This document shows, piece after piece, positions 4,978-32,154 of a stretch of 64,000 nucleotides of DNA. Each line of letters starts with the position of its first letter. Positions within the stretch are counted from its first letter, which is position 1. A program made the position numbers and the translations under genes. The stretch is from Cyanodermella asteris (lineage: Eukaryota; Ascomycota; Lecanoromycetes; Ostropales; Stictidaceae). The notes below the pieces were generated by a model. That model was not told where the DNA came from and ran no database searches. It saw only the letters and a program-made list of their open reading frames with translations. Location of the stretch: positions 158,262-222,261 of the forward strand of contig UYJD01000003.1 in the NCBI GenBank assembly GCA_900618795.1. The letters run 5' to 3'.

Positions 4978-5167
4978 CAAGGTGGGCTGATGGAAGCTGT
5001 CGCGCGTACTGTTAAACTAAGGGTCTAATTTTGTAGGTACGCAACGAAGTAGTAGTGAGGCTATGTGTTTAGCTACTTCGATGAAGTGCTGAAGGAGCAA
5101 TCTAGGTAGGAAAGTAGGTAGGCAGGTACTTGGCTGTTTCCGTCAAGACTTCTGTCAGCCCACCTTG
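4978..5167. mobile_element. CAAGG miniature inverted-repeat element, copy 1 (190 bp)
   Basis: The left end reads CAAGGTGGGCTGATGGAAG. The right end, reversed, reads CAAGGTGGGCTGACAGAAG, so about 19 bp of inverted repeat differ at only two positions. The 4 bp ATCT lies directly on both sides (4974-4977 and 5168-5171), a likely target-site duplication. The interior has no coding capacity and contains degenerate TAGGTA-type runs (ctaggtaggaaagtaggtagg). It is best read as a non-autonomous DNA transposon (MITE). The superfamily is unknown to me. Four related copies lie further right. Confidence 0.78.
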
Positions 5168-5333
5168 ATCTTTAAGAAACTACGGTATTCAGACGATGAT
5201 CACGTTTGCTAAGTCTCACCAGCACTCGCAATCTGAGCCTCCCTGTCGGATGGCAAGGCAGTTTCAAATGTGCTTCCAGGCGTCTCTCCACAACGACGAT
5301 CTCACACAGGCAAAGACAACTGCTGTGTTTTAG

Positions 5334-7075
5334 TGGCCTGTTGCCTTCGCTACGGTCATCGCTCAGACTTTGAAGGCATATGCGGCTTACAGAGTCGAGC
5401 GAGGCATCCCACTGGTGGTGAGTTTGGCAAGAAGTCGGCCTTTTGAGACCTCCAAGCTCACTGAAGCAGACTATGGAGCAGTTGATCAGCAGCCACTCTG
5501 TTGGCGCAGCCGTAAAGTAGCCGTTCATGCTTCGAAAGGTCAATTGGGCAACACTCATACTGCTCGTCTTGTGGTGCTCATCTCCACTTGCCGGCCAAGG
5601 CATTTTCCGTATGGTGTATACTGAACTCCTTTCAGCCCCACGACGGGACCAACGTGATCTCCCCGTCGACGACGAATGAATCGATCGCCGCCCTCCATCA
5701 AAACATGGCACAGCTCAGTCAGACATACAACTCGCTCATGCTCATATCGGGGTTGAATCTGGAGATCAAGCAAGACCCCTGGAAAAACGCCAAGATTCCT
5801 GCATATGGAGGTCCAGCAAATTCGTCTAAGCCTTTCAACACCACCGGCGCTCCAGAGGCTTCGTTTCTGGGGATTCCATATGCGGAGACCAGTGAAGACT
5901 CGACGGAGGACGCATTGCAATTCACCAACTCACCGTAGTCTCGACCTACTTTGTGCTCGACTGCTCGAGCTTCGAAACCCACACTCTCGGCAGCCCGGAA
6001 CTTTTCTTCGAAGCCGAGCAAGAAGCTATATCTCTCCGTCGAGAAAGCCACTCTGACAGTGAAGAAACCCACCTTTGTCAAGTTTGAGACGCTCGCTCCC
6101 ACCAAGACGTCGAGCGCAGCACCCACAGAGTTAGCTCCCGAAATGGCAACTTCCGGCACCTCATCAGAATCAGATTTCTTCTCGTGTTCTGCGCCCGACG
6201 TCACTGGTGTACTGCACATTGGATCTCTTTGGTATCTCCACGGAAGGAGGCGCCCCAACCCGTTTCGCGAAAATAGAACCCGGCTTGACGAGAACAAAGC
6301 CACGATCCGATACGCCAGATGTTCGTACCGTCAAGTGATAGTGACCAGCGACGTCTCCTGCAACAGGCAGCTTACCTCGAACGCCAGCGAGTCGTGCCCA
6401 GTGGCCAGCCAGCATCTCAATACCACAGCGCCAAAGTCCGGCTTTAGGCCTCTGCAGCCGTAGTTCGTGACAGCCATGTTAGACGCAAGCATTGGCGGGG
6501 TCGAAGATGGCGGCTATACATATTCGAACACCGAACGCCAAACTGCCAACCCGGCCATCCTCACCGACACCATCAAGACGCTGCAGAGCAGGATGGCCGA
6601 CGTCGATGCCAAAGGTCTGTCAGATCGTCTGGGACTCCTCGTTAACACACTCTGGATGGCTGGTACGTCGTCGATGAACGAACTCTTCGGGCTCCGGCAC
6701 ACTGGATCGGTCGCTTATCCCAGCACCGCCGCGTAAATTGACATTACGGTCGGCCTCAAGTACGTCGTCGTGCAAGCCTGGCTCGGGGTCGTCATCGCGT
6801 GCAGGTGCCTGCTCGTCCTGGGCGGCATCGCCGCGGCAGCATTCGGGTTCCGCAGCATCGGGCCGGATATCCTCGGCTTTGCCAACACGGCGATCAAGCG
6901 GAACGTCAAGCTGCCAAAGGACATGAGCGCCGTGAATGTAAAGGGTAGACTTGCGGCTCTGCAGGAATGTGAGGCTCTGTTGCAGGACGTGCGCCCCAAT
7001 GCGCAGCATGGGAAGATTGCGCTGGGCGTCAAGGAGACGACGTCGAGGTTGGTGCCGGAACGAGATTACGTGTAA
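5334..7075 (+). pseudogene. Decayed multi-pass membrane protein gene (fungal SPLGGQA-type family)
   Basis: Scattered blocks on one strand, in the right order, match what I know of a large uncharacterised Pezizomycotina membrane-protein family. They are WPVAFATVIAQTLKAYAAYR (from 5334), NWATLILLVLWCSSPLAGQG (about 5540, the family's SPLGGQA motif), an extracellular SYF.LDCSSFE-like block (5935-5975), WLGVVIACRCLLVLGGIAA (last membrane segment) and GPDILGFANTAIKRN before the tail. A 53-nt intron (GTGAGT, 5417-5469) still looks spliceable. The gene is broken. There are in-frame stops at 5518 (TAG), 6461 (TAG) and 6734 (TAA), and frame changes near 5620, 5925 and 6030. Two of the stops could be C-to-T changes of CAG. 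The amino terminus is not recognisable, and a MITE ends only about 170 bp upstream. Confidence 0.72.
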
Positions 7076-9281
7076 GGATAAGATGGGGGATGCGGTGCTA
7101 TTTTTGAGGCTCTTGTCCCTCGGATCGTGCTTTTGTACTCTACATATTCTGAAGGTCGTGTTTTGATTTGTGTCGCTGCCCAGCGCAGTAATATTATAAC
7201 GAGATTGCCTACCTAGTTACGGACATTCAAGCGTCCTGAGCCCATGTCACCTGCATCAGCCTCGCCGCGTGGAAGTCGCTCGTTTGCGGACAATGGGTGT
7301 ATTTACCACGGGACGCCTCGACTTGTAGTTTAATTCGTCCGAGGGGCCGACGCGCAGGGGCCAAACTTGTGGTGACGCAGATGGGGGCTCCGTGGTTTCA
7401 CCAGATTGAGGGGATCAAGGATGCCCGTCGCTTGTCTGCGCTGGGCCACATGGCCGACCACTGCCGCTCCTCCAGCCAAAAGGCAACGCGTCCTCTCAGA
7501 AGTCCTGTGCCTATCTTTTCTACTACGTCTGCCCCTGCTGACGCATCAAGTTGTCAACGACTTTGCGCGTTGATGAAGTTCGTGTTGTGTGGTCATTTTT
7601 TCGATCAGCTTACGAAGATAATCTCCAAAGACCGACCATCACTGTAACAGGCACGGACCTCAAACAAGCATCACGGATATGTAGTCAGCCAAGACGTAGG
7701 ATGCCCAACGATGACCCACAGGCCAAAGCTCGCCTTGTGCCAAGATGATGTGGAAGAGTGAGGCTAGGAAGGGAGAATTTCACCGTTTCAGAGAGCGGGA
7801 TCTGCGCTGGCTTATCTGCGGGAATAGACGTCAGTCCTGTCGGGCCGGTTTGGGAGGAAAACGACAACAAAGACTTTCGATCTTATCCTTTTGGCTTCAC
7901 TATTCGGGCAAGGTTTTACTGTATCCAGCAAGTCGGGTCGCGTGCGCCTTTGCCGCATTGATAATGACAGCGTGTAGATATTCCAGCCGTATCCAGACCA
8001 AGTTCGTGATGCCGGTAATTCCACGAATGAGATCCTTGTCATGCTCTCGCTAGGTCAGACCAGGACTGGTGGCCTTATCGTAAGTCACGTCGCTCCAGAC
8101 GTACTATCGTACACCGAATATCACAAACCATGCTCGAGCGTTGTCGTCATTGAGACAGCATCCTTTGGTCGCAATCAAAGACGTCGGAGAAATGGCCGTT
8201 GAACGTTTCCCTTCCGAGCCAATGGGGCGCTGTCAAGGCTTCCGGGCCAGTTAGCTCGGTTTCAACCATGGTCTTGGCCATGCCTCCTCCCGAAAGAGTA
8301 CAAGCCTCTGTACGGGGTTTCTGCAAGCTACCATGACCGCGCCATCGCACACGCGGCTCACCGTTGCAGCCATTGACGATTGAGCTGCTGCTCGTGCTAG
8401 CTAGAGCACAACAGCGGTTCCTTTGTGGGACGCGCGTGCAGGGGCGCTTTTTAAAATTCGTTACCACAAAGCCGGTGAGGAGTATAGCACCACGTATACA
8501 CGTGAGACCACGGCTTCGTATTGAACGCGTTTGAAAATCGGTGGAGCCCGCGACAGGGTCATGGAATTGCTGCTCACAGGACGAATAGGTATGCTGGCAG
8601 GGGCATGGGCCGCTTGGCGATTGGAGATTCAATGAACGATCCAAGAAGCGGTAATCTGCTAGGGCCTGGGCAGATTGATTGGCCTTCTAACGATGGCCTG
8701 CAGCTGCAGGACACAGTCTGCCAGCGTGTTTTCGCCGGCCTCTGTAGTGTGGAGGATGAGCTGACGGTCAAAATTCCTTATGCTTAACCCGGCAAGGAGC
8801 TCGGCTGACTTACGACGCGCTGGTAGCGGCGAGGACTCGTCCGCAAGCTGTCGCGGCGGCATGAGATGGGTATTGGGGGGTTGTTTTGTCCGCAGCAAGG
8901 GGCGTGGAGGTGGTGCAGCCGGAGTGTGCGACTCTCGTTGACTCCTCACTCGCACCTTCCTTGGGTAGGAGGTGAAGCGCACGTAATAACAAGTCGTACG
9001 TACCTCGCCTACTTAGGGCCAAAGGCAAGGCATGCACTACTAATGCCACCGGCCCCACACTTCGAAGACCGACAGCAGAGAGCACATGGCTTGCTATTTG
9101 TGAAACCTGCATTCTCTCTGCTATCCACGCCCGGTTTGCCTCTCCACTTCTCCAGCCATCCCTTGATCCTGACATCGTCCTTTCATGGTCTTTGTCCTCT
9201 GCAAGGACAAACACCCTCGCCATCCCCCTCCGCTCCATCTTCAATTCTCACGGTCTTTCCCTGTCCCCTTTCTCCCACACC
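7076..9281. other. Intergenic stretch, no supported gene
   Basis: About 2.2 kb between the decayed membrane gene and the acyltransferase. Open frames of 90-165 codons occur on both strands without motifs, and I treat them as chance. The last 300 bases are C/T-rich (many CTCC and TTTC runs), typical of a fungal 5' UTR or promoter for the rightward gene starting at 9282. Confidence 0.55.
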
Positions 9282-10661
9282 ATGTCACGGCCTAGTTCAA
9301 ACGGCGAGATCCGCTTCATTGATGTGAGTGCACATGCCATGTCAATATCCATCTTGAATCCGAGGGCTAATCGATCGTAGGGTCTTCGTGGTGTCGCTTC
9401 ATTTCTCGTAGTCAACGCACATATCGCCCGCTCATTCGCCCCCTTCTTACTCAGTCCCGCCAACGAAGACGGCTCGTCACTGACATGGCAACAACCCATC
9501 GTGCGAAATATGTTCATGGGCCGCGCTTCCATCGCCATCTTCGCCATAGTCTCCGGCTACGTCAACGGGCTCAAGGCCACCCGACTGACCAGGGAAGGCC
9601 AACATGATGTTGCCCTCATTGCCGTCTCCAAGACAGCCTTCCGACGAACGTTCAGATTCATCCTACCAATGGTGGCAGTCACCTGTATGACATGGTTTTT
9701 GTGTCAACTCGGAGTTTTCAAGCTTGGAGAGGTGGTTGAATGGGCCTGGATCCGCGACACAAGTCCGAAGCAGAGTGAGACGGTGCTCGACGCTGTCCAG
9801 GATCTGTTATGGAGCCTGGGTAAGACTTGGGTTGATGGGGCAAATGAGTATGACCCGGTGCAATGGACGCTCACGTACCTGCTCCGAGCATCGATGCTCG
9901 TATATCTCACGCTGGTTGCGACCGCGTTTGTGAAGCCGAAGCACCGCTATGGCATGTACATGATCATGTACGGCTACTATTACTGGATGGGCGATGCCGT
10001 CATCGGCATCAACATATACGTCGGCCTCTTTCTCGCCGAGCTGTCCAATGATCCGACAGTCAGTCAACTCATGGCCAAGCCGAGCCTCGGCCTGATTTGT
10101 GCAGGACTCACATCAGTCTTCCTTGGCCTGTTCTGCATTTCATACCCCGAGATGAACCCCCAGTCGGCGAACTGGTCGAACAACCTCCTACACGCCGGCC
10201 AATGGCTATTTCCCGATGGTGCCGAATTCGATCGGTTCTGGCCTGCCATAGGAAGCCAGCTTATCGTGTCAGGCCTCTTCTTTGTTCCACAATTGAAATA
10301 TCTGCTCTCATGGGCGCCGCTTTGCTGGATGGGAAAGGTCAGCTTTGCGATATATCTGATTCATGGAACCCTGATGCGGAGCCTGTTGACTTATTTGGTG
10401 TTCGGATGGAGCGAGCGGCCAGAGCCGCAGTTCAACGAAGAGACGAACGAGTGGTACTTGACAGCATGGGTACCGGAATACAGCAAGCTGATGACTGCAA
10501 TTGCGATTGCTCTGTTCTATCCCATGCTGTACCGAGCAGCCGGATGGTGGGTCAAATGGGTAGATCCAGCGTGTGGAAAATTAGCAAAATGGGCGGAGAG
10601 TTGGATGTTTGTGGAAGGAGAGAGCTCGGAGAAGAGCGTGGCACCTTCATTGCCCTCATAG
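9282..10661 (+). CDS. Acyltransferase-3 family integral membrane protein
   Basis: A 42-nt first exon (9282-9323) is joined across a 57-nt intron (GTGAGT..TCGTAG, 9324-9380) to 9381-10661, giving 440 residues. The joined start IRFIDGLRGVASFLVVNAHI is the typical opening of acyltransferase-3 proteins (OafA/YrhL, Pfam Acyl_transf_3), with the family's conserved His in NAHIAR. About ten hydrophobic helices follow, including FRFILPMVAVTCMTWFLCQL, a Tyr-rich YYYWMGDAVIGINIYVGLFL and a final ALFYPMLYRAAGWWVKW. SFAIYLIHG matches the late conserved 'YL.H' helix. Such proteins move acyl groups onto sugars or lipids across membranes. The substrate here is unknown. The ATG is in good context (CACCATGTC). 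No defect is seen. Confidence 0.88.
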
Positions 10662-11051
10662 GATGTCAAATTATACCCCGCCGATTGTACGGCTAAAACA
10701 TCGACTGCGTGAGGGGTGCTGGCCATACTTTCAAAAGCAGCCGATGTCAACACATACGATACCGAATTTCCTTTGTGGGTACGGCATAATGAGTCAGCAG
10801 GTCAAGGTTGAGTAGCCATCGTGCTCACACGTCAATAGAGGAGGATATATATGTCAGGTCTAGGCCCGGCCTGATACCGGGCCACAGCCCGTGTCGAATG
10901 TAGCCTCATCGTGATGGCAAAATGGACTGAGCACTGCTCTTATCAATATGATTTCTTTATACACTTTGGTTGAATTCTGGCTGCTGCCCGTCTGGCTATC
11001 ATTGCTCATCAGTCATATGTTGTTTGTCTCCGTTGTTGCAAGTATTCACCA
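10662..11051. other. Convergent 3' intergenic stretch
   Basis: This is 390 bp between the acyltransferase stop and the stop of the small His-rich gene. It should hold the two opposed 3' UTRs. I see no gene or repeat; a hairpin-like ggcccggcctgataccgggcc lies at about 10863-10883. Confidence 0.5.
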
Positions 11052-11336
11052 TCACTCTTTCCAGTTGTATTTGTGGTGTGTCTCTCCAATTTCCGGGACA
11101 TTGTGGTGGCCCCCGGTGGTGGCGCTTCCCGGATGGTCCTTGACATGGGGGTCGAGATCGTTCAGGACAGCATTGACCTTTGCAGAGTGCTTGGTATGGA
11201 CCGGGCCTTCGAGGACGCCGGGAATGTCTGCGGAGTTCTTCGGATGTTCGCTAGCTCCAGGAGTGTTCATGGTATGATACACTCGATTTGCGTCATGCTC
11301 GTGGGCCTCTGCTACAGCTTGAGTGTTGTGGGACAT
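11052..11336 (-). CDS. Small His-rich hydrophilic protein, 94 residues, unknown function
   Basis: A single exon reads from ATG 11336 to TGA 11052. The protein has no Cys, no signal peptide and no hydrophobic stretch. About 13 of 94 residues are His (EAHEHD, VHTKHS, GGHHNVPE, GETHHKYNWKE), mixed with Gly, Pro, Asn and acidic residues. Such composition suggests an intrinsically disordered protein, perhaps stress-related or metal-binding, but that is inference. I do not recognise the family. The codon pattern and a clean ORF favour a real gene over chance. An alternative in-frame TTG lies two codons upstream; the ATG is preferred. Confidence 0.6.
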   Translation of the reverse strand: MSHNTQAVAEAHEHDANRVYHTMNTPGASEHPKNSADIPGVLEGPVHTKHSAKVNAVLNDLDPHVKDHPGSATTGGHHNVPEIGETHHKYNWKE

Positions 11337-14907: not shown

Positions 14908-17900
14908 CTAGAATTGCACAAATCTCCTCCTCCTGTATCCCGGCGCCACGGTAGTCGCAGCCTGTGTCGCCTGCGGCTGCCCGTCGGTGAATTCGCTCAC
15001 CGGCACTCCAGCACCGTAGCTGGCGACAGGCGCGCTCGTCACGGTGGTCGTCTCGACGACCTCGGTGCTCAAGCTCGCGCTCGGCGCGCCGGGGGCGCTG
15101 TACGTCGGCGCCGTCGACGTGGCGTTGGCTCCGATCGAGTAGCCGATGCCGGAGCCCGCGGTGCCGACGCGCCGGACCGTCGTGGTGGATCGCGGGGCCG
15201 TGGCGGAGACGAAGCAGTCCGGCCCGCAGGCGGTCACGGTGATGTATGCCGTTACGGTGCTGGCGACGCAGCCGCCTTCGGATCCGGATCCGGATCCGAG
15301 TCCTGAGCCTGAGCCTGAGCTTGAGCTGCTACCGGCTGGGCCGGATGAGACCGGGGCGGTGGCGGTGAAGGGCTGGGAGCTGGCTGCTGGAGCGGTGTAG
15401 CCGGGGGCTGCTGGGGCTGAGGACTCTGGGATCAAAGGGACCGAGGCGGCGGGAGCGGAGGACGCGGCTGGCGCCGTGTAGCCTGGCTGCGTCACGCTGC
15501 CGACAACTGGTGGGTAGCCTCCGACCTGCGACGTCGCTTCCGCGGTCGTCTGAGCGGGCTGGGACTCGGCTGGGACGGAGGAAGCGGCGGCGGGAATCGT
15601 GGTCTCGGTCCCGACGGGGCACCACGTGGTGGTGACTTCTCGGGTCTGAGTGATCACGACGGGAACGCCGGAGCTGGCGCCGGCAGAGGTGAGCGGGCAG
15701 TCGGTGATGTCGGGTCCGCACGACGTGATGGTCTGGACCTCCGTGGTCAGGTAGGTGCTCGTCAGAGTCGTGCTGGGGCTCGGAGCCGGAGCCTGGCTGG
15801 TTGCCTCGGGAGCGGTCGAGACCGCAGATGCACCGCTGGCGGCGCCAGAGGGCGTCACGTACGCAGTTGACAGCACCTGGGCGGTCGAGGTTTCCTCGAC
15901 GGTGGTCGTCTGGGCCGGAGCGGTCGAGCTACCGGGCAGAATCGTCTCGGTCACGGGGCAGATGGTAGTGTACTCGCTGATAGTGCTTGTAACGACCATT
16001 GGCGTCCTAGACTCGACGGGGCAGTTTGTCACGGTGGGAGCACAGCTCGTGATCGTGATTTCGGTCGTCACCTGGACGGTGCTGGTGCTCATGTAAGTAG
16101 TCGTGATCGGGATCGCAGTGGTAGATGGGGCGGCACTGGACTCGGGCTGCGAAGAAGCAACAGCCGTGGTTTCTGCGGACGACGAAGGCGCAACGCGAGA
16201 CTCGGTCGAACCGCCATAGGCAGGGACCGAGGGAGCGCTTGTGGATTCGGCGGCGCTGCTCGACTGCTTGGAAGTAGCCTCGGCGGAAGTTTGGGGAGCT
16301 GAGCCGGACTCGACGCTCGTGGATCCGCCATAGACTGGGACGGTAGCGGTGACGGGGCAGACTGTCGTGTAGCTGGAGATTGTGCTCGTCACGACGGTAG
16401 GGACAGTCTTGCTCTCGGCCGGGCAGTTGGTGACAGTGCTGGCGCAGGAGAGGACCGTGATCTCGGTCGTCACGTAAGCAGTCGAAGTGGTGAACTGAGT
16501 AGTCGAAGGCAGCTCAGAAGAGCTTGTGACACCAGCAGAGGTCTCAGAAGACTTGCTAGTGGCTTCGGCGCTCGTGCTCTCGGAGCTTGTAGTCTGGCCT
16601 CCGTAAGCAGGGACAGAAACCGAGGATGAGCCGGACGAAGTGGCTTCGGTGCTGGTCGTAGGAGCAACGCGGCTTTCAGTAGAACCACCGCCATAAGCCG
16701 GGACGGAGACCGATGAGCTCGTTTCAGTGGAGCTGGCCTTGGAGGTAGCCTCAGCGGTAGTTCCGACGGAGGACTCGGAGCTGCTGCCAGAGCTGCTCTG
16801 GGCTCCGTAAGCCGGGACTGAGGAAGACTCCGAGGAAGACTCCGAGGTAGCTGCCGCGCTGGTAGACGGGGCACCAGAGGAGCCATAAGTCGGAACCGCC
16901 GAGCTAACAAGGCCAACAGTGGTGTATGGAGCAACAGTGGTCGGCGATGGAACACCCAAAGAAGCAGTTACAGGGCAAACAGTCACGTAGTCGGGAACCG
17001 TGACAGTTGTGACAACGGTGTGAGTCTGAGCAGCAGTGTTGGCCAGGCAATCCGTGATCGTCTCAGCGCAGCTAAGGATCGTAACATCTGTAGTCTTGTA
17101 GACGGTCGAGGTAACGTAGACATCGCCGTTGGATGTAGTTGAAGCTGGGAGGGTAGCTGAGGGAGTGATCGACGACGGAATGGTCGAGGTAGCGGCAGCA
17201 CTGGTCTGGACGGAGCTGCTTGATGAGGCGCTGTATGCAGGAACAGACTCGGAAGAGCTAGCCTTGGATGTAGCCTCGGCGGTGGTCGATTGAGCAGAGG
17301 TGCTGGACGACGAAGAGCCACCGTATGCAGGAGCGCTCTCGGAGGAGCTGGCTCTGGATGAAGCCTCGATGGTTGTCGATTGAACGGAGCTGCTCGACGA
17401 CGAAGAGCCACCGTACGCAGGAACACTTTCAGATGACTTCGAAGTAACCTCAGCCTGTGTAGATGAAGTCTCACCACCGTAGGCCGGGACGCTCGCGGAA
17501 GAGCTTGAGGAAATGCTCGAGGACGCGGCAGCGGTGGTAGACTCACCACCATACGCGGGAACGCTAGCTGAAGAGCTGCTTGACGATGCAGCGGCTGTCG
17601 TGCTCTGACCGTAGGCTGGGACTTCAACTGAAGAGCTGCTGGAAGTTGCCGCAGCTGTAGTGCTCTCACCGCCGTAAGCAGGAACGCTGGCTGAAGAGCT
17701 GCTTGATGATGATACTGCGGCAGTGGTAGATTCACCTCCGTAGGTTGGGACACTAGCCGACGAGCTTGAAGTTGCCGCGGCGGTGGTGCTCTGACCATAT
17801 GCAGGGCCTTCGGTCGAAGAGCTTGAAGAGGCGGCAGTGGTCGTGCTCTCGCCACCATAGGCTGGGACGTTGGAAGGGCTTGACGATGCTGCGGCGGTGG

Positions 17901-18552
17901 TGCTCTGACCGTAAGCTGGAACTTCGACTGAGGAGCTCGATGACGCGGCGGCAGTGGTTGATTCGGCTCCGTAAGCGGGGACGCTAGATGAAGAGCTCGA
18001 CGAGGCTGCAGCTGTTGTGCTCCGACCATAGGCGGGAACCTCACTTGACGAGCTCGAGGATGCAGCGGCGGTCGTGCTCTGACCGTATGCTGGGACCTCG
18101 GCGGATGAGCTGGAGGACGCGGCGGCAGTTGTGCTTTGGCCGTAGGCGGGAACTTCTGTTGAAGAGCTGGAAGTGGCGGCTGCGGTCGTGCTTTCGCCTC
18201 CGTATGCTGGAGCACTCGACTCAGTGCTGGTGGCTGCTGTAGAAGTGGTCGAGGCACCGTATGCGGGGGCTTCCTGTGATGTGGTTGTGAACGCTTGGTC
18301 CTTGGCGAGGACCGAGGAGGTTGACTCCTGAGATGTGGTAACGAGTGTGGACGATGTCGTCAATTGAACGCTGTCGGAAGATACTTGGCTGCTGGTCACC
18401 GCCAGGGTAGACGCAGCGGAAGTAGCGCTCGTCGGTACGTAAGTGCCATAGATAGGCGTGTAAGGTGGTGGGCCGTATTCATCCGCTGCCTTGGCAACGA
18501 CTGAAGAGGCCAAACCGAGGGCAAAGAGTCCAGTAAAAGTGATCTGGACCAT
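14908..18552 (-). CDS. Large Ser/Thr-rich repeat protein, predicted secreted/cell wall
   Basis: A single exon encodes 1214 residues. Residues 1-22 are a signal peptide (MVQITFTGLFALGLASSVVA). Residues 95 to about 445 hold about 17 tandem units of 18-30 residues built on [VA]PAYG[GQ][ES]STTAA plus a poly-Ser run. Further PAYG units recur between later modules. Four modules with three cysteines each follow (near 16962-17125, 16352-16490, 15955-16105 and 15617-15765). Each has the pattern TT[ED][IV]T..SCA..[IV]T[DN]C, then about 20 residues, then CPV. A shorter fifth relic ends in ACGPDCF. The rest is nearly all Ser, Thr, Ala and Val, so heavy O-mannosylation is expected. The C-terminus ends GYRRRRFVQF, basic and not hydrophobic, so I see no GPI-anchor signal. 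A structural wall or adhesin-like role is likely; the exact family is unknown to me. Confidence 0.85.
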   Translation of the reverse strand: MVQITFTGLFALGLASSVVAKAADEYGPPPYTPIYGTYVPTSATSAASTLAVTSSQVSSDSVQLTTSSTLVTTSQESTSSVLAKDQAFTTTSQEAPAYGASTTSTAATSTESSAPAYGGESTTAAATSSSSTEVPAYGQSTTAAASSSSSAEVPAYGQSTTAAASSSSSSEVPAYGRSTTAAASSSSSSSVPAYGAESTTAAASSSSSVEVPAYGQSTTAAASSSPSNVPAYGGESTTTAASSSSSTEGPAYGQSTTAAATSSSSASVPTYGGESTTAAVSSSSSSSASVPAYGGESTTAAATSSSSSVEVPAYGQSTTAAASSSSSSASVPAYGGESTTAAASSSISSSSSASVPAYGGETSSTQAEVTSKSSESVPAYGGSSSSSSSVQSTTIEASSRASSSESAPAYGGSSSSSTSAQSTTAEATSKASSSESVPAYSASSSSSVQTSAAATSTIPSSITPSATLPASTTSNGDVYVTSTVYKTTDVTILSCAETITDCLANTAAQTHTVVTTVTVPDYVTVCPVTASLGVPSPTTVAPYTTVGLVSSAVPTYGSSGAPSTSAAATSESSSESSSVPAYGAQSSSGSSSESSVGTTAEATSKASSTETSSSVSVPAYGGGSTESRVAPTTSTEATSSGSSSVSVPAYGGQTTSSESTSAEATSKSSETSAGVTSSSELPSTTQFTTSTAYVTTEITVLSCASTVTNCPAESKTVPTVVTSTISSYTTVCPVTATVPVYGGSTSVESGSAPQTSAEATSKQSSSAAESTSAPSVPAYGGSTESRVAPSSSAETTAVASSQPESSAAPSTTAIPITTTYMSTSTVQVTTEITITSCAPTVTNCPVESRTPMVVTSTISEYTTICPVTETILPGSSTAPAQTTTVEETSTAQVLSTAYVTPSGAASGASAVSTAPEATSQAPAPSPSTTLTSTYLTTEVQTITSCGPDITDCPLTSAGASSGVPVVITQTREVTTTWCPVGTETTIPAAASSVPAESQPAQTTAEATSQVGGYPPVVGSVTQPGYTAPAASSAPAASVPLIPESSAPAAPGYTAPAASSQPFTATAPVSSGPAGSSSSSGSGSGLGSGSGSEGGCVASTVTAYITVTACGPDCFVSATAPRSTTTVRRVGTAGSGIGYSIGANATSTAPTYSAPGAPSASLSTEVVETTTVTSAPVASYGAGVPVSEFTDGQPQATQAATTVAPGYRRRRFVQF
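17215..18270 (-). repeat. In-frame tandem repeat tract of the wall protein
   Basis: About 17 consecutive units of 54-90 bp encode the PAYG + poly-Ser motif. Variants (GQ, GGES, GAES, GRS) alternate, suggesting higher-order duplication of two-unit blocks. Such tracts in fungal wall genes commonly change copy number between strains. Confidence 0.85.
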
Positions 18553-23965: not shown

Positions 23966-24395
23966 TGTCCAAAATGGTACGGCGTGGGGAAAATGTGGAG
24001 GGAGCTGTGCAGCTTTGTGCTAGAGACAGCAATGTCGCGCGCTCCAAATCCTGGAAAGTCACAGACTGAATACACTTACACACATGAAAGGTCGTTCGCG
24101 CTCGAGAAGAAGACACGGCTTCGTCACCCTTCAGCCTGAAGTAGACTCAAGGCGGCTGGTGGCAAAGTTTGCCCATACGTGCATACGCAGCACGTGTCTT
24201 AGCGACTGGTATTGCGTCGTGGAGCGCGAGATCCGTGAGACCAAATGTGGCAGTCAAAATCGCTCAAGCTCAATGCACAGACTCGAACGCGGAGCACATT
24301 TGATGATCGATAGAGCTTTCAGATTGCGCATGAACGTCTTCGATTGAAAGGCATGCAGTTCGAAGTTGAGTTTGGGTGGCGCCAGATGCGCCGGT
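23966..24395. other. Promoter-side stretch of the GH28 gene
   Basis: This 430-bp stretch lies between the GH28 start and a CAAGG miniature element. I see no gene in it. Confidence 0.45.
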
Positions 24396-24622
24396 CAAGG
24401 CGGGTAATCGGAAGTTATGGTGCACGCACGGTTAAGCACACCTCTCAATATCCTACGTCATCTACTTATTTATTAATACCTAGCAGTACCTCGTGAATAA
24501 CGCGAGCCTCAACTTCTCGCAGATACCTATAGCAGTGGTCATCGAGGTCGATGTGAACGTATTACCATAAGTAGAAGTTTCAGGACTTGCGCAACGACTT
24601 TTGACTACTAGTACCCGCCTTG
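24396..24622. mobile_element. CAAGG miniature inverted-repeat element, copy 2 (227 bp)
   Basis: The left end is CAAGGCGGGTAAT. The reversed right end is CAAGGCGGGTACT, giving 12 of 13 matching bases. The interior is A/T-rich and non-coding. It aligns along its length, with many differences, to the copy at 29548-29769: shared blocks include ACACCTCT, GCGAGC.TCAA, AAGTAGAAG and the CCCGCCTTG end. No clear target duplication remains, suggesting an old insertion. Confidence 0.7.
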
Positions 24623-25517
24623 CGATTGACGTGATGACGTGACATGGGCTTCGCCTGACTCCACCTCAACCTTAATAAGCATACCCAGCAGCCTTGAAGA
24701 CACTCTTGTAGGCATCCGCCCCGGGTAGCAGATGTGAGGTAAATAGGCAATTGTCCATGAGAGACGGCTCAGAGGAGTGAAGGTAGTTTGACTTTGCCTT
24801 TCTATTAGCGGCAGGCTAGAACTGTGGTCGAGGCAACATCTCCCGAAGTGAGGAATATTGACCAAAGTTCATGGTCAAGCCCGAAAGCTTCGACCTTTGA
24901 AGCCGTTGAGACCGTTGTGGCCTGTGGTGCAGCTGTCTGCGGGCACTGGCGAATCCATGGTAGGGGTCAACGCCTCCATCAGTGACTCCTCTCGACCTTA
25001 ACCCTGTCAGGCCGTCAGGATCCTCCACGTTTGCGCGGACGCGGGAGTCTACTGGCGAGAAATAAAGTGCAGCTGCAGATGAGTCCCGCTATGCCTCAAG
25101 TGGAAGGGACTTTAGCTGCGCTGCAGGAAGAGCTGGTTTCGCGGCGGCACGGAGTCGAAGTAACGCAATGCCAGGTACATTGAGCCGTGCTGATCACTGA
25201 AGTTCAAAGTGACCTGCCAGAACATGGCGTAGCAGAGAAAACTGGTGTGAGCACGTGGAGAAACGCACCGTCGCTCGATTGCTCTCCACCCACGACGCAG
25301 CTTTCCAGCCGTCTTGTCGATATCTGCCCTGTCGAGAGTTCGAGGGAGAAGAAAGCTACCAAGAAAAGGCGCGGGTTGCTTTGGATCGACAGGCACTATT
25401 GCGCATGTATCAAGCTTTCAGAAATTGGCCGGCTCAGGATCATCGCCGATTGAATTCGGGCTTCTGGAATGACGAACGAAGCACCAAGATCAAATATTGT
25501 GCTTGAGTGACACGAGA
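24623..25517. other. Intergenic stretch upstream of the GDPD gene
   Basis: About 0.9 kb with only short motif-free frames on both strands. The right end merges into the TATA promoter of the gene at 25610. Confidence 0.45.
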
Positions 25518-25609: not shown

Positions 25610-26758
25610 ATGCTGAGAACAATCTACTCTGCGGCTGGAATCGCGCTCCTTCTCACGGGCTCTGTTACAGCAGTTCAGACCATCGCTCATCGTGGTCTTT
25701 ACCGCGACTTGCAAGATGCCTATTCAATTTCCGAAAACGCAGTCGACGCAATCTATCGTGCATACAACCTGGGGCTTCCTGCAGTCGAAATCGATCTGCG
25801 CTTGACGTCTGATGGCCAAGTTGTCGTCACCCACGATATGATTTCCAACCGTGCAACCATCGTAGACAACGACAACGGCCAGCTGAACCCAGTCGATGTT
25901 GCCCTGAAGATTCAGCCGGCCACGGCACCAATCTCCATCAATCAGAAACCCCTGTCCTTCTGGAACCTGATTTCTCTGAAGATCTATGGCCTCAATGCTG
26001 AGATCATACAATCCAAGGAATACCATCCCAAGATGGAGAGCCTCGATGCAATGCTGCAGCATTTCGGCGACCTCCAGGCTGGCAACAAATTCCTTCTCTT
26101 CCTCGACATCCAAGATCCAACCATCCTGCGCCTGGCGGGAGCACTCGTCAAGCAGCATGGCCTCGAGAGCACAGTCTTGCTGAAGTTCTTTGCCACGAAA
26201 GCCATCGACTCGACGAACTATCGCTACAATTCCTACTTCACATGTGCCCAATATGCCCGCGAAAACAACCTGTCCGGGCTACAGATCGTTCCTCAAATCA
26301 ATGACGGCGAGTTGAACGCCCAAGGCACGATCAACGTGTTCCAGACTAGCCTTCCCGTCGAGCAGTACCTGGACTGCTGGGATCAGGCTCAGAAGGCCAA
26401 CATTGGCGGAACAGCTGCTTTGATGCCCATGGTTGCTGCAAGTGTTCCTGCCAACAACCAGGTCGCCTACACCACCGCAGTGAACGCTATGCGATGGGCG
26501 ACTCGAAATGGGCGCGACAAGATTGCTATTGTGCCGAACCCCGATGTCGGCCGCAGGGTCGGCGAAACGTGCCAGTACTACAGCTTTTCCTCCACCAGTG
26601 TTGCTGCAAGCCCGTTCAACCAAGCGGCCAGAGATGCCAAGGAGAGTTTCGCTCTCGGCCCAGCAACAGCAGACTGGATTGTGACGGATGTGATGGGTGA
26701 CTTTCTGCACAGGACCTGGGTGACTGATCTGCCGAGGTATGTTGCAGGCCTGTGCTGA
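25610..26758 (+). CDS. Secreted GDPD/PLC-like phosphodiesterase
   Basis: A single exon of 382 residues with a signal peptide (MLRTIYSAAGIALLLTGSVTA). The GDPD-type TIM-barrel signature is clear: AHRG at 26-29, SEN at 41-43, E60.D62 in EIDLRLTSDGQ, and the second catalytic His in VVVTHD (H75). Late strands include FLLFLDIQD and WIVTDVMGDFL. Family members hydrolyse glycerophosphodiesters, or related phospholipid head groups, with Mg or Ca. The secreted location suggests phosphate or choline scavenging, or lipase activity outside the cell; the substrate is inferred. The upstream TATA box and CA-rich leader support this start. Length is normal for fungal extracellular members. No defect seen. 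Confidence 0.87.
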   Translation: MLRTIYSAAGIALLLTGSVTAVQTIAHRGLYRDLQDAYSISENAVDAIYRAYNLGLPAVEIDLRLTSDGQVVVTHDMISNRATIVDNDNGQLNPVDVALKIQPATAPISINQKPLSFWNLISLKIYGLNAEIIQSKEYHPKMESLDAMLQHFGDLQAGNKFLLFLDIQDPTILRLAGALVKQHGLESTVLLKFFATKAIDSTNYRYNSYFTCAQYARENNLSGLQIVPQINDGELNAQGTINVFQTSLPVEQYLDCWDQAQKANIGGTAALMPMVAASVPANNQVAYTTAVNAMRWATRNGRDKIAIVPNPDVGRRVGETCQYYSFSSTSVAASPFNQAARDAKESFALGPATADWIVTDVMGDFLHRTWVTDLPRYVAGLC

Positions 26759-27038
26759 TCAAAAAAATAACGGAAAGACCATGAAGCGACTGAGAAAGAC
26801 GGAGCAGTGTTTCATCGAGCGCGAGGTGAGCGGATCGGGCGCGGTCGCACACGTCCTGTTCAGCAGAACGTAGCCAGCATCTCTGTACATGGCTCTTGTA
26901 GACATTTTACTCAGGACTAAACAGGCTACCTGCACTAATACATTGCTTCGGTCCCTGGAAAATCCTCCTCGCAGATGGACGCGCGGTATTTAATTGTAGG
27001 CCCGAGCTTGGGAGTCCAACCTTTGTGTGGCGAGGTCG

Positions 27039-27261
27039 CAAGGCGGGTGGAAAGAAGCCTTTGCCGGTGTCATCTCCCTTGAGTAGGTACGCAAATAGAC
27101 ACCTGGCTCGGTGTTTAGGTGGGTACTTAGCTAGGTACTTAAGGTAGGTACTTAGTAAACGATTCATCTTAATACTTAGGTGGATGTCTCAGTGGGTATT
27201 TAGCTATACGTTCAGCTGGCATGAACGAAACAACGGCAGCAACTTCTTTCCTTCCGCCTTG
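27039..27261. mobile_element. CAAGG miniature inverted-repeat element, copy 3 (223 bp)
   Basis: The left end is CAAGGCGGGTGGAAAGAAG. The reversed right end is CAAGGCGGAAGGAAAGAAG, which matches at 17 of 19 positions, and similarity extends to the TGCCG about 28 bp in. The core is a run of degenerate TAGGTACTTAG units (27110-27200). No coding capacity. It lies just downstream of the first ankyrin gene. In reverse orientation it closely matches the element at 32016. Confidence 0.78.
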
Positions 27262-27394
27262 AGGAGGGTAAGAGTTCCACGGCTGGCTGAAAATTCGGAG
27301 ATACAAGAGCGCGAATTTGACACGACCAGGTAAGCTGGCTCTCTAGCCTTCGGAAGCATAGTCGTGATGTTTGCGCCAGCGCATCGCTGATCTC

Positions 27395-29153
27395 TTATTC
27401 TGGACCCACTACCTGTAAAACGTACGCATAGTCAGAGGTGCAATGCACTAGTGCTTTCCGCAACGGGCAGATATCACGATGGCCGTACTCAATTGCATAT
27501 TGAACGGCGAGCTTTCCGTTCTCGTCTTTGGCTAGGGGGTCGATGCCGTGGTTGATTAACAAATCGACGACAAGCTCGCACGAGCCAGGTTTATCGTCTC
27601 CATTGCTGTCGTGACATAAGAGATGAAGTGCATTTTTGCCATCCACAGTTCGCGTCGCGTGGACATCGGAGGCAGCGTGCAGGAGGCTTTCGAGCACTTG
27701 AATATCATTTGCATTGTCGTAAGAGTATCCGAGAGCAGTCTGGCGACAGAAAGTAAGCAAGGGCGTCTCACCAAAGTCATTGATCGCATGAACATCGGCG
27801 CCACCTTGAAGTAACTGCTCAACAGCGTCTGGTTTGTTCCAGTAAGCAGCAATGTGAACTGCACGCAATCAGTAACGGCGAAAGTCTCTGTAATGATTAG
27901 AAATTACTTACGCGCAGTAGATCCAGAATGCGAGGATTCACCATGATCAGTAGACGACCGGACTGTTTGCCGCACATTGGCTCCATTGGCAAGCAGCCAT
28001 TTAAGGCCATACACCGGCGGGGAAATGCTTGCTCGATGCAAAGGCGAGAAGCCATCCGAGGCGACAGAATCGATAGATAATCCATTGAGCACCAATAGGT
28101 CCATGACAGTTGTATCGGATACTCTTACAGCACGACTAAGAGCTTCTACGGCTTGCGGACTGCTCAGAAAGCTCTGAAAACGCGTCAAAATCAGAGATAG
28201 CGCATGACGCCGGCTTTGAACGGTGTAAGGACTCCATTTCGTAAAATAGTCATAGCCAACCCTATAAGTAGTCAACGCGCCATCGATATGTCCGGGGTCC
28301 AAAGCGTCCTCGAAGTCGTTCGCCCCATTGGCGATCAGTAGATCTAGCAAACTCTCATTAGGAGCGGGATTGCTCACAAATGCCCTTAAGGTTTGTGCGC
28401 AAGTCATACCGCGGTCTAGGAACTCTTTAACTAGGTCAAGTTGGTTGTATCTGATTGCCATTTCCATCTTGAAAGCATTAGACAAGCCTTATAAAACGAA
28501 TGGCGACTTACGGTTGATGTGTGTGCTTTGGTATCCTGGAGGCTAGCAGCGGCGCCGCGGTCCAGTAACAGATTGAAAACATCCCTCCTGTTAGGCGAGA
28601 AGACTTGTGGTCCACTTGCATCGACGACACTGAACTGTCTTGCATCAAGCGCTCTTCGCAGCAGATCTGCTGTAAAGGTTAAATCCTTGCCCTCACAATC
28701 CGTCTTGTTGTAGTCGACACGGGCTCCAGCATCGAGAAGTAGGTCTATGGCCTCCTGGTTGTTGAACTTGACTGCCTCCGAAAGTGGTGTGAAGCAGATT
28801 GCGCTTGAATGCGTGAAGCCGACGCTATCAACGGTGGCGCCACGCTGTATGAGGAGCCGTAGAGCTTCTGTTTTGTTGTATCGGGCGGCGATATGCATGA
28901 AGGTGACCCAGTCTTGATTTTCCTTCCACCGCCAGCCAGCCAGGGAAACAGGGTGCAGCTCACTGTATTTCATGAACTTGTAACTGTTGAGACGAAAGGT
29001 TTGCTCTAGGTCTAGACCAGCATCTATCTCGGCCTCGAGTTTTGCGGTATCTCCCCTGGCAATGTAGACGACTGGTTTGAGGAAAGCTCGATCTGCTGGA
29101 TTCGCTCGAATGTGCCTTGGCGACGACGACGGCGACCAGTCTCGAATGTGCAT
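27395..29153 (-). CDS. Ankyrin-repeat protein (tandem paralogue 1)
   Basis: Three exons (28512-29153, 27912-28467, 27395-27858) joined by introns of 44 and 53 nt (GTAAGT..CAAG with a CTAAT branch site; GTAAGT..GCAG) give 553 residues. The second junction creates the ankyrin start STALHIAAYWNK. Eight or nine ankyrin units are visible: FMHIAARYNKTEALRLLIQR, TPLSEAVKFNNQEAIDLLL, AIRYNQLDLVKEFLDRG, SPLHRASI..GLKWLLANGA, LHIAAYWNKPDAVEQLLQGG, ETPLLTFC, NALHLLCHD and LVVDLLINHGIDP. There is no enzyme, NACHT or membrane domain, so it is a stand-alone protein-binding scaffold of unknown partner. Exon layout and sequence are shared with the neighbour at 29811-31571, so the pair arose by tandem duplication. 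Confidence 0.85.
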
Positions 29154-29547
29154 GATGTCTCTGCACGACCTTAGTCGACAATGAGTGACGCTGGGTTCCT
29201 GCGGTCAAGAGAAGTCGGCTGGGAACGCGGGTTCGCACTGCCCTTGACCGGCGGGCTCAGCTGCAAATCTCTCACGTGCATGTCGGGTCTGGAGTCGGCG
29301 GCCAACTGTTCGGCTGCCGGCAAGCACCATTCAGCAATGGAGAACCCTGTCGGTGGAGTTTCGGAAGCAGCCTTCTTCTGGCATGGGATAAGCCATCAAC
29401 CGCCTTACCAAGTTTGGGGCAACTGTCGCTTCAGTGATTGTGTCTGAACAGGGAAGCCTCCAGAAAGACTGCGAATGGACCATCGCTCCAGGTGAAGTAG
29501 TGAAAGGGCTCGAGCCATGCTTACATAATCAATATCTATCGTGCCCC
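29154..29547. other. Spacer between the ankyrin paralogues (left part)
   Basis: Promoter side of ankyrin gene 1, about 390 bp. No gene is seen; the stretch runs into the miniature element at 29548. Confidence 0.45.
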
Positions 29548-29769
29548 CAAGGCGGATGGACAAAAGTCGTGGCGTACGTACGAGTAAGAACACCTCTGAA
29601 AGTCCTTGTTTAACGACTTATGAACCGGCTCGCGGTAGTACCCTACAAAGGACGCGAGCATCAATTTCTATAGGTACTTATAATACTATCCCTGAAGGTA
29701 GAGATATATGTGATAGAGAGCAAGTAGAAGCTGTAGTACTAACACCACGACATCTGCATACCCGCCTTG
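29548..29769. mobile_element. CAAGG miniature inverted-repeat element, copy 4 (222 bp)
   Basis: The left end is CAAGGCGGATG and the reversed right end is CAAGGCGGGTATG. The body aligns in the same orientation to copy 2 (24396-24622), but is more A/T-rich and clearly diverged. No target duplication is left. It sits between the two ankyrin genes, 41 bp beyond the stop of the upstream paralogue. Confidence 0.66.
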
Positions 29770-29810
29770 TGCAGCATTGTTAACATATCATTCTTCTGGG
29801 GGGGTTCATT

Positions 29811-31571
29811 TCATTTATCGCAGTCTTTCAACTGCATTACAAGGGGATAATCCGGAGTGAATTTCTCCAACGCTTTTCGTAAGGGGCAACGTCTACCATG
29901 CCCCTGCTCAGTAACAGAATGAACAGCGAGTTGACCGTCTCTGTTTCTAAACAAGGGATCTATGCCATGCTTAATCAAAATCTCCACGATGGGCTCGCAC
30001 CACTCAGTGCAGCTGTCGTCGTACTGCTCACGAATCAAAAGATGGAGCGCGTTCTTTCCATCAGAACGAGTCGCATGGACATCCGAGCCAGCCTGTAAAA
30101 GGATTTCGAGCGTTCTGATAGGGCCATCAGTGACGTCGCGCACAGAACCACTGACGTTCGCGCAAAGGCGTAGCAGGGGTGTCTCTCCATGTCCATTGAT
30201 CGCGTTGACATCCGAACCAGCATAAAGTAAACGCTCGACGATGTCCGGCTCCTGGCAACGGGCGGCGACATGCACTACGCTCTGTCAGCGAGACCATTCA
30301 TGCAAGGGAGAAGGGGAGCTCACACGCAGTTTCACCTTCGAGGTACGATCCAACGAGCTCGGATCGTGTTGCCTGTTTGGTCAAATCGGCTCCGTTAGTC
30401 AAAAGCCATTCAAGTGCGTGCATGGGTTTTCCGCGACTTGCTATGTGAATAGGCGAGTATCACCATGAACCGATGCAGTTGATGGATATGCCGTTATCCA
30501 CTAAAAGCTCCATCAACGTAAGGTCCCCTATACGTGCGGCCTCCCCAATCATCTCCGATGCTTGTGGTGTTTTTATAAAGTCGCCAAAGCGTTGCAACAT
30601 CAAAGTCATTGCATGATACCGGTTTTTCGCAACCGTCGGTGGCCACTGAACAATCTTGACGGCCCCATGAGCGAAGCGCTCCTTAATACCGTCTATATGT
30701 ACCGGTTTGAAGGCATCCTCAACATCATCCGCCCCGTTAGTGACAAGCAAGTTGAGCAGGTCCTTATTAGGAGTGGGATTACACACGAATGCTCTCAGTG
30801 TTCGCTTGCAAGACAGCCCACGCTGCAGCAGCTCATGCACGATATCAAGCTGATCGAATCGCACGGCCATTTCCATCTGGCCTCTATTAGCTGGCGCTCT
30901 CCAGAAGGACACAGACTACCTACCGCTGGAATATGGCCACCAGATTCCTTGAAGCTGATGTCAGCACCATGCTCAAGCAGCAAGCTGAAAATCCTTCTTC
31001 TATCTTTCGAATAGACAACATCATGACTTGCGCTGGGGATTCCGGGCCGTCTTGCATCAAGGGATCGCCTCAATAGATCGGAAGCAACGGTAATGCCTTT
31101 CCCCTCGCCGCCGCGAATTGTGTAGTCAGCCCGAGCCCCTGCATCTAGCAGGACTTGAACCGCATCGAGACGACCGAAGTTGGCGGCCTCCATGAGCGGC
31201 GTATAGCACAAGAATGTTGTACTATCGTAAGCGACACTGTCCAAAGCCATGCCATGTCGTATGAGCAGCTTTAAGACTTCTGTCCGGTCATATCGAGCAG
31301 CAATGTGCAACAGAGTGGTCCAGCCGTCATGTTCGTCGTCCCAACAGCGATATTCATCACGAAAAATCCCGAGTTTGATCAGACTCGGAGTCACCCTGTT
31401 GCCCTTGAAAACCTGTTCTGGATCGAATCCGCTATTAAGCAGGGCGGTCAAGCGCTTCACATGTCCCTGTGCGGCAGAAGGAATGGCGGTGCACAGCTTG
31501 CGGTCATTGTAGATGTCGCCATAACGGATATCGACCGAGGACTTTGTCTTTTCCCATTCCAGTATGTGCAT
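29811..31571 (-). pseudogene. Ankyrin-repeat gene (tandem paralogue 2) with an in-frame stop
   Basis: The three-exon structure (30924-31571, 30324-30876, 29811-30274) matches paralogue 1. Introns of 47 and 49 nt fall at the same places, and the second junction again builds TALHVAAR. Both intron borders are intact (GTAGGT..CAG, GTGAGC..TAG) and the frame runs on to the normal stop. However, codon 355 of 555 is TGA (30460-30462), inside the unit that reads SPLHRAS in the paralogue. Ankyrin units before and after are well preserved (LLHIAARYDRTEVLKLLIRH, TPLMEAANFGRLDAVQVLLD, GETPLLRLCANV). So this is a recent nonsense allele, a sequencing error, or a truncated 354-residue product that is still made. 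Confidence 0.65.
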
Positions 31572-32015
31572 TGGAAACGAGTTTGTGCAAGTCAGCTCAA
31601 GAATGCAGTTGTGCGTGCAGCAGAAAGAAATGATTTAATGTACAAGCACAGAAGGGGCCGAGATGGGGTCTCGTAAGGTAGGATAACAGATGGGGACACG
31701 CGCGTCCTGCTCGAATTCCCTTTAGTATCAACCTCGTAGAGGATCAGCCGCGAGCTGAAGAGCCAGCATGTGCCTGCAACCAGCTAGTGGTCTGGAACTG
31801 GAGACCCGCTCGGCACCGTGCTCGGGAGTCGGGCAACACGGTCATTGTCTGACGCAAATCTAACACCAAGTCTATCGCGGCATTCCCTCCGCAGAACAGC
31901 GCGTTAGGGTCGATTCGGAGGAAGGAAGTTCTTCATGAATGGCAGAGCCCCTGCGCCAAAGTTACAGAAGATTGAACTTCGCCGGGTACTCGGATTAGTC
32001 AGCTCATGTGCAATA
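31572..32015. other. Upstream flank of ankyrin paralogue 2
   Basis: About 440 bp, promoter side of the leftward ankyrin gene. No gene is seen. Confidence 0.45.
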
Positions 32016-32154
32016 CAAGGCGGGATGAAAGAAGTCGCTGCCGACGCTCCTCCGTCCATACCAGCCAAAACACCTAGCTAAACACCTAGCCGAATAACTA
32101 GTCAAATACCTAGCTAAGTACATACCTAGTGATCTAGCCAAGTACCCAGCCAAG
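32016..32154. mobile_element. CAAGG miniature element, copy 5, probably truncated
   Basis: It begins CAAGGCGGGATGAAAGAAG and continues TCGCTGCCG, matching the reverse complement of copy 3 (GGAAGGAAAGAAGTTGCTGCCG) base for base over most of its first 28 bp. It then enters a long run of acctagctaa/acctagccaa units, like the core of copy 3. I could not find the expected CCGCCTTG at the far end, so the right end seems lost. The end coordinate is approximate. Relative to copy 3 it is inverted, and the two bracket the ankyrin pair. Confidence 0.6.

What the first reader, a model, noticed from the sequence alone, without database searches (positions are those of the whole stretch)
4978..32154. A family of CAAGG-ended miniature elements, five copies in 27 kb
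Five short non-coding segments (4978-5167, 24396-24622, 27039-27261, 29548-29769, and a partial one at 32016-32154) share inverted ends starting CAAGG(C/T)GG and, where complete, a length of 190-227 bp. Copies 1, 3 and 5 share a core of TAGGTA/CTTAGGTA-like runs. Copies 2 and 4 share a different, A/T-rich body. So there appear to be two subfamilies using the same ends. None lies in the housekeeping half of the window.
Basis: seen in the sequence. Interest (0 to 1): 0.7.

Follow-up and report, generated by a model that had tools for sequence, protein, structure and literature searches.

The report
Fungal MITE family with 12-bp lattice
The five segments belong to a large family of short, apparently non-coding jumping DNA elements scattered through this fungus-like genome, which share their ends, leave a 4-base scar where they insert, and have interiors built on a 12-base rhythm; no enzyme that moves them was found.

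Summary
The window lies in a 28.5-Mb, 25-contig genome, most likely of an ascomycete fungus (inference). The end motif CAAGGCGGGNNNNNNRAAGTC (at most 1 mismatch) occurs 351 times in the genome, against 3 for the reversed pattern.

The elements are true insertions. Of 64 with both ends, 31 have an exact 4-bp flanking repeat (control mean 1.35); lengths of 5-9 bp give none. Alignability stops at the ends: 76% identity inside, 26-27% outside, 19 A copies. Elements lie mostly between long reading frames.

There are at least three body types, not two: A/C (copies 2 and 4), B (copies 3 and 5) and D (copy 1, by its ends). The interiors carry a 12-bp periodicity, which in A, C and D continues in phase into the inner terminal repeats.

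No longer, coding element with these ends was found, though not every end could be followed. CACTA, MULE and hAT searches were empty (two without a ringing control). So this is a MITE superfamily with an unidentified, perhaps extinct, transposase. The 12-bp lattice is the unusual part.

The parts
4978..5167 (.). Copy 1, 190 bp, complete, D-type ends (CAAGGTGGGCTGA..AGAAGTC)
4974..4977 (.). Left target-site duplication of copy 1 (ATCT)
   Evidence: 4-bp rule
5168..5171 (.). Right target-site duplication of copy 1 (ATCT)
24396..24622 (.). Copy 2, 227 bp, complete, A type; 40 genome matches including itself
24392..24395 (.). Left side of a decayed duplication of copy 2 (CGGT; right side 24623-24626 CGAT, 3 of 4)
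27039..27261 (.). Copy 3, 223 bp, complete, B type with degenerate 12-bp tandem body
   Evidence: DNA fold-back z -4.83
27117..27154 (.). Part of the tandem body of copy 3 (unit called as 13 bp, AGGTAGGTACTTA)
29548..29769 (.). Copy 4, 222 bp, complete, C type; 25 genome matches including itself, best other full-length match 89%
32016..32154 (.). Copy 5, B type, right end missing
   Evidence: its end is listed as C12:190277
32063..32114 (.). 12-bp tandem body of copy 5 (4.2 units)

Best explanation
The five segments are copies of one superfamily of miniature inverted-repeat transposable elements. Shown: they end in CAAGGCGGG(N6)RAAGTC inverted repeats of about 22-36 bp; they are often 220 bp long (27 of 64 are 218-222 bp); about 200 places in the genome carry at least one end or a matching stretch; they are flanked by a duplication of exactly 4 bp; and they sit mostly between long reading frames. 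Inferred: a transposase acting in trans recognised the ends, excised or copied the element, and joined it to a target cut with a 4-bp stagger; the gaps were filled by the host, giving the 4-bp repeat. The source of that transposase is unknown, probably an element now lost from this genome or too decayed to see. Bodies of all types are built on 12-bp monomers with an (A/G)GTACTT-like core. In A, C and D the monomers run in register from about base 17 to base 208 of 220, so they include the inner part of the inverted repeats. I infer that an ancestral element was a 12-bp tandem array capped by the CAAGGCGGG ends. B copies still gain and lose units, while A, C and D have diverged but kept the register.
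For: 351 end-motif hits with at most 1 mismatch against 3 for the reversed pattern; 73 A-type and 168 B-type ends with at most 3 mismatches against 0 reversed each. DNA matches, query included: 40 for copy 2, 18 for copy 3, 3 for copy 1, 25 for copy 4, 15 for a D element. Exact 4-bp duplications in 31 of 64 elements, control mean 1.35 and maximum 5; lengths 5-9 give 0; 45 of 64 match at 3 or 4 of 4 positions (no control run for that last count). Flank identity 0.274/0.261 against 0.757 inside for 19 A copies. Element bases 15% in frames of 150 codons or more, against 63-82% at 600-1200 bp away, 44 elements. Lag-12 identity 0.368 (A), 0.330 (C), 0.372 (D), 0.570 (B) against about 0.25-0.26 in column permutations, reached by 0, 3, 0 and 0 of 2000. 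210 flank controls give 0.276 against 0.386 in 37 bodies. The body-derived 12-bp profile scores the inner terminal repeats best in the predicted register, rank 1 of 12, in 6 of 6 held-out stretches.
Against: No autonomous element with these ends was found, so mobilisation in trans is inferred. 33 of the 64 elements with both ends lack an exact duplication, including copies 3 and 4 of the window. No empty site from a relative could be compared. The column-by-column relation of D to A is not shown: body identity 0.41, no better than some rotations by 12 or 24 bases. Agreement of the C unit with the B unit is marginal (25 of 500 permutations reach it).
Confidence: 0.9

Rival explanations
1. The segments are structured RNA genes or regulatory RNA hairpins kept by selection, and the inverted ends are a stem.
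For: The strands tested fold far better than shuffles: z -4.83 (window copy 3, DNA), -4.08 (L059, DNA), -6.70 and -5.09 (L055, RNA, both strands).
Against: No compensatory change: own left-right arm identity is not above that between arms of different copies (0.743 against 0.743 in 19 A copies; 0.750 against 0.759 in 7 C; 0.666 against 0.700 in 9 D), and paired double changes in the ends do not exceed shuffles (5 against mean 4.5 in A, 2 against 3.0 in C, 2 against 6.4 in D). A 4-bp target duplication is not expected.
Confidence: 0.03
2. The copies in the window spread by local segmental duplication together with the ankyrin genes, not by transposition.
For: Copies 3, 4 and 5 border two related ankyrin genes (27395-29153 and 29811-31571); the parts compared are 38% identical over 250 aligned positions.
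Against: Among the intergenic stretches compared, the only match is 28 bp (89%) between copies 3 and 5 at their shared end sequence; copies 3 and 4 are of different types; copies are genome-wide.
Confidence: 0.03
3. The elements are relics (for example solo terminal repeats) of a retroelement whose integrase makes a 4-bp duplication.
For: Some retroviral-type integrases duplicate 4-6 bp (recalled).
Against: Solo LTRs have short TG..CA ends (recalled); here the inverted ends are about 22-36 bp and start CAAGG. No flanking coding body was noticed in the two long-spaced pairs inspected.
Confidence: 0.03

Closest known systems
MITE superfamilies of Mycosphaerella graminicola (PMC4522978; passages seen)
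   Same: A fungal genome in which several MITE families have the same terminal repeats and duplication but different internal sequences; MITEs more prevalent in gene-rich regions.
   Different: The duplications given there for its MITE families are 2, 5-6 or 8-9 bp, none 4 bp. A 12-bp body lattice is not mentioned in the passages read.
Sola2 DNA transposons (PMC3627910; passages seen)
   Same: 4-bp target duplication and terminal inverted repeats.
   Different: The duplications described there are AT-rich (AWWT, ATAT and the like); here they are mixed and rather GC-rich (GGCC, AGCC, CGCC, CTCC and others). No Sola transposase was searched for.
Chapaev, Academ and Ginger DNA transposons (4-bp or 3-4-bp duplications; recalled, no call)
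   Same: Duplication length, as recalled.
   Different: End sequences as recalled (CAC.., TGT..) differ from CAAGG; no transposase of these groups was searched for in this genome.
Minisatellite-bearing non-autonomous elements such as DINE-1/Helentrons (PMC4067079, listing only; the comparison is recalled)
   Same: A non-autonomous element with internal tandem repeats.
   Different: Those are rolling-circle elements without target duplications; here a clean 4-bp duplication is present.

Membership tests
MITE | Short (below about 600 bp) | tested here: met
   64 elements of 80-420 bp, that range being set by the selection; 27 of 64 are 218-222 bp
MITE | Terminal inverted repeats that are the limits of alignable sequence | tested here: met
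   (limits tested on 19 A copies)
MITE | Target duplication of constant length | tested here: met
   4 bp, 31 of 64 exact, control mean 1.35
MITE | Many copies | tested here: met
   351 end hits; 213 merged places, some elements counted twice and many missing
MITE | No coding capacity | tested here: inconclusive
   15% of element bases lie in stop-to-stop frames of 150 codons or more against 63-82% 600-1200 bp away; an 80-codon frame overlaps copy 4; coding was not tested further
MITE | Derived from or moved by an autonomous element with the same ends | tested here: inconclusive
   The two long-spaced end pairs fetched were a copy with a nested insertion and two copies around a gene; not all end pairs were listed or fetched
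Tc1/mariner | TA target duplication (recalled) | tested here: not met
   4-bp varied duplications; 2-bp matches 3 of 64 against control mean 4.57
hAT | 8-bp target duplication (recalled) | tested here: not met
   0 of 64 at 8 bp; PF05699 gave no match, but its control was silent
Mutator-like (MULE) | 8-11-bp target duplication (recalled) | tested here: not met
   0 of 64 at 8 and 9 bp; PF10551 gave no match with 3 of 14 controls ringing, all prokaryotic
CACTA/EnSpm | CACTA-like ends and 2-3-bp duplication (recalled) | tested here: not met
   CAAGG ends, 4 bp; PF02992 gave no match, control silent
piggyBac/Kolobok | TTAA target (recalled) | tested here: not met
   none of 32 exact duplications is TTAA
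Sola2 | AT-rich 4-bp duplication (PMC3627910, passages) | tested here: not met
   4 bp but not AT-rich
Chapaev, Academ, Ginger, Sola1 | Transposase of that group | not tested

The most novel reading that the evidence does not exclude
The element is a lattice of binding sites: palindrome-like (A)GTACT cores placed every 12 bp from 20 bp inside one end to 20 bp inside the other, the outermost cores being the AAGTC motif of the inverted repeat. A transposase or host protein coats this lattice, and mobility depends on the register and number of cores. That would explain why the A, C and D alignments all have 220 columns although their sequences have diverged, with about 38-48 substitutions per indel (20.6 in B), and why B lengths fall near 40+12k (15 of 21 within residues 1-4 modulo 12, a post hoc count that includes one doubtful end pair, L083).
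Probability: 0.25. Interest if true: 0.65.

Novelty: new variant of a known kind. Interest (0 to 1): 0.42.

Why it matters
MITEs are usually described as two ends with an indifferent filler. Here the filler of sequence-divergent subfamilies follows one 12-bp rule that also governs the inner ends, which makes a testable case for a body that matters to mobility, or for birth of a MITE from a minisatellite. A 4-bp, not AT-rich duplication with CAAGGCGGG ends also gives a clear signature with which to look for an unassigned transposase in related fungi.

Tried and rejected
Autonomous partner. Convergent end pairs at long spacing were sought by eye in the listed hits: all 73, 100 of 168 and 100 of 351; the rest were never listed. 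Two were fetched. C10:47464-48832 is an A copy with a nested insertion whose own ends are inverted (TATGTATCC/GGATACATA) and whose middle reads N. C14:762045-764986 is a D copy and a B copy on either side of an aminotransferase-like gene (name by eye, no domain search). A third, C8:441918-446674, was not fetched whole; its two ends have partners of their own nearby, one of them decayed. Ends that seemed unpaired (L071, L072, L075, L079, L082, L083, L084) were searched loosely: L079 has a clear right end, L082 and L084 decayed ones, the other four none that I trust. Those four could be truncated copies or ends of something longer and were not followed further.

Transposase families: PF02992, PF10551 and PF05699 gave 0 matches, but the controls of PF02992 and PF05699 were silent, so those two absences are not shown. 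PF13358 gave 4 matches, 3 over its cut-off, 3 of the 4 with internal stops: mostly remnants of a superfamily with TA duplications (recalled), not candidates for a 4-bp one. The ends of these four places were not examined on purpose.

RNA structure: rejected for lack of covariation. Local duplication: rejected. Clustering: 5 of 201 mapped places within 27.4 kb is reached in 28 of 2000 random placements, but the window was chosen because of the cluster and its copies were used as queries, so I do not claim it. Nearness to contig ends (82 within 250 kb, 64.6 expected, maximum 87) is weak, and contig ends need not be telomeres. RIP: C-to-T changes are more frequent at CpA than in other contexts (A 0.158 against 0.079-0.093; C 0.169 against 0.053-0.079; B 0.264 against 0.109-0.145; D 0.140 against 0.105-0.128), a modest signal; transversions are too many for RIP alone.

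Papers: no title listed in the searches (20 of 89 listed; 0 found; 15 of 29; 15 of 22) and 68 describes CAAGGCGGG-ended or 12-bp-lattice MITEs. Only listings were seen, except passages of PMC4522978, PMC3627910 and PMC4455052. Subscription papers, Repbase and most preprints were not searchable. Exact end patterns had no match in viral contigs (A and B types) or in prokaryote genome contigs (C type), as expected for a fungal element.

Rows dropped: one search used 61 of 68 elements (doubtful pairs removed). The subfamily alignments used 19 A, 7 C, 9 D and 15 B elements, leaving out truncated or doubtful ones. Two of the 9 D elements (window copy 1 and L069:101-320) were placed in D by their ends only, and the last-listed of these aligns poorly (112 substitutions). 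Window copies 2 and 5 are not among the 61, 64 or 68 elements. The D matches came after the counts and are not in the 213.
Full report
WHAT WAS CHECKED. Inverted CAAGGYGG pairs at 150-300 bp occur 4 times in the window; 200 simulated sequences give a mean of 0.005 and a maximum of 1. The window lies in contig 12 of a genome of 28.5 Mb in 25 contigs. Its genes include MCM7, a MutS homologue, a PreP-type peptidase, a family-28 glycosyl hydrolase and ankyrin proteins; with the genome size this points to a filamentous ascomycete (inference; no tool named the organism).

A GENOME-WIDE FAMILY. DNA searches of the own genome, each including the query itself, returned 40 matches for copy 2, 18 for copy 3, 3 for copy 1, 25 for copy 4 and 15 for a D element; the lists overlap in part. 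The end pattern CAAGGCGGGNNNNNNRAAGTC occurs 181+170 times with at most 1 mismatch, against 3+0 for the pattern read backwards. The A-type end gave 38+35 hits and the B-type end 83+85 with at most 3 mismatches, against 0 in each control. Merging the places listed up to one search gives 213 places. That number is rough: elements whose ends lie more than 230 bp apart were counted twice (at least five, for example C11:54260-54618), some places are ends without a confirmed partner, and many hits were never listed.

INSERTIONS WITH A 4-BP DUPLICATION. Among 64 elements with both ends, 31 have identical 4-bp flanks (500 shuffled pairings: mean 1.35, maximum 5), 45 match at three or four of the four positions, and lengths of 5 to 9 bp give 0. 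An earlier set of 68 gave 32. Window copies 1, 3 and 4 are in these sets, copies 2 and 5 are not. The 32 exact duplications are varied and rather GC-rich (GGCC 3; AGCC, CGCC, CTCC, CTTG 2 each; 21 others once). Outside the ends, the 19 aligned A copies are no more alike than chance (0.274 and 0.261 over 20 bp), against 0.757 inside. They lie mostly between long frames: 15% of their bases fall in stop-to-stop frames of 150 codons or more, rising to 37-39% at 350 bp and 63-82% at 600-1200 bp away (44 elements in loci of at least 3 kb).

SUBFAMILIES. All-against-all comparison of 61 elements gave one group of 29 (A with C), one of 20 (B), one of 7 (D) and five singletons, window copy 1 among them. 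The cap CAAGGCGGG and the motif RAAGTC were used to find these elements; the six bases between them were free and differ by type: mostly TAATCG in A, TGGGCA in C, AGGAAA or TGGAAA in B, CTGACA in D. A and C majority bodies are 68% identical without gaps. D shares length and ends with A, but its body identity of 0.41 is no better than some 12-base rotations, so a common body is not shown.

THE 12-BP LATTICE. The B bodies are visible tandem arrays (unit GCTAGGTACTTA). The bodies of A, C and D, which show no obvious repeat, also match themselves best at shifts of 12, 24 and 36 bases. Permuting alignment columns, which keeps relatedness, reached the lag-12 value in 0 (A), 3 (C), 0 (D) and 0 (B) of 2000 trials. 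Flanking sequence of the same loci shows no such signal: 0.276 in 210 stretches against 0.386 in 37 bodies, and other multiples of 3 are nearly flat in the bodies. The A, C and D units agree in phase counted from the element's left end (correlations 0.76-0.88 at shift 0 on the same strand; for D the best value is on the opposite strand at a shift of 4) and share the core AAGTACYT. Agreement with the B unit is weaker: 0.65, 0.51 and 0.63 for A, C and D, reached by 1, 25 and 1 of 500 permutations, and at other shifts. As a held-out check, a profile made from bases 41-180 only was scored on bases 17-40 and 181-208 in all 12 registers: the predicted register ranked first in 6 of 6 cases. The outermost caps (1-16 and 209-220) do not follow it, apart from the left cap of D. 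A and C are related, so this is three independent bodies at most. The A, C and D alignments all have 220 columns, with 38, 48 and 42 substitutions per indel event; B has 21. B lengths vary from 124 to 359 bp, with 15 of 21 falling in residues 1-4 modulo 12 (post hoc, one doubtful pair included). No neutral indel rate is known for this genome, so selection on length is a suggestion only.

NOT AN RNA STEM. The strands tested fold well, as any element with long inverted ends must. There are no compensatory changes: the two ends of a copy are no more alike than ends of different copies, and double changes in the ends do not exceed shuffles.

THE MISSING TRANSPOSASE. Two long-spaced end pairs turned out to be a copy interrupted by another transposon (part of it withheld as N) and two copies on either side of a gene. 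Searches for MULE, hAT and CACTA transposases returned nothing, but two of the three had silent controls. Tc1/mariner-type DDE domains exist as 4 partial matches, 3 with internal stops. Those superfamilies have other duplication lengths anyway (recalled). Repbase's own rule groups non-autonomous elements that have the same duplication length and alignable first 11 bases, with 1 mismatch allowed (PMC4455052, passage). By the duplication and the first nine bases, A, B, C and D come close to one superfamily; bases 10 and 11 differ between some types.

HOW IT MOST LIKELY WORKS. Shown: inverted ends, exact 4-bp duplication, dispersed copies between frames, 12-bp body. Inferred: cut-and-paste movement in trans by an unidentified transposase with a 4-bp staggered cut; origin of the bodies from a 12-bp tandem array; present inactivity, since the best full-length match to a window copy is 89%. 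Precedent for one set of ends with several bodies exists in Mycosphaerella graminicola (PMC4522978, passages). The periodic body continuing into the ends is what I did not find described (searches; listings only, partly cut).

Noticed in passing
L052:201-1569 (C10:47464-48832): An A-type copy is interrupted by a nested insertion of roughly 1.1 kb with its own inverted ends (TATGTATCC/GGATACATA) and a helix-turn-helix-like frame resembling Tc1 elements (by eye); most of its middle is withheld.
   Followed up: partly
L060 (C12:137500-138300), about 300-490: A close B relative of window copy 3 (88-89% in two pieces) carries a run of nearly identical GGCTGGTTACTT 12-mers, which looks like a recent expansion of the body unit.
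   Followed up: partly
L058:101-185 (C5:857278-857362): An 85-bp element that is little more than the two inverted ends, with an exact CTAT duplication; the shortest of the elements with both ends that were analysed.
   Followed up: no
L069 (C14:761945-765086): A D-type and a B-type element flank an aminotransferase-like gene (by eye) on both sides.
   Followed up: no
window 27395-29153 and 29811-31571 (minus strand): Two tandem ankyrin-repeat genes, 38% identical over 250 aligned positions in the parts compared, with an element in each adjoining gap.
   Followed up: partly
window 17233-18210: Long tandem repeats with units of 57, 60, 90 and 114 bp inside the 1214-codon frame 14908-18552, which has no Pfam match; possibly a repeat-rich surface protein.
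   Followed up: no
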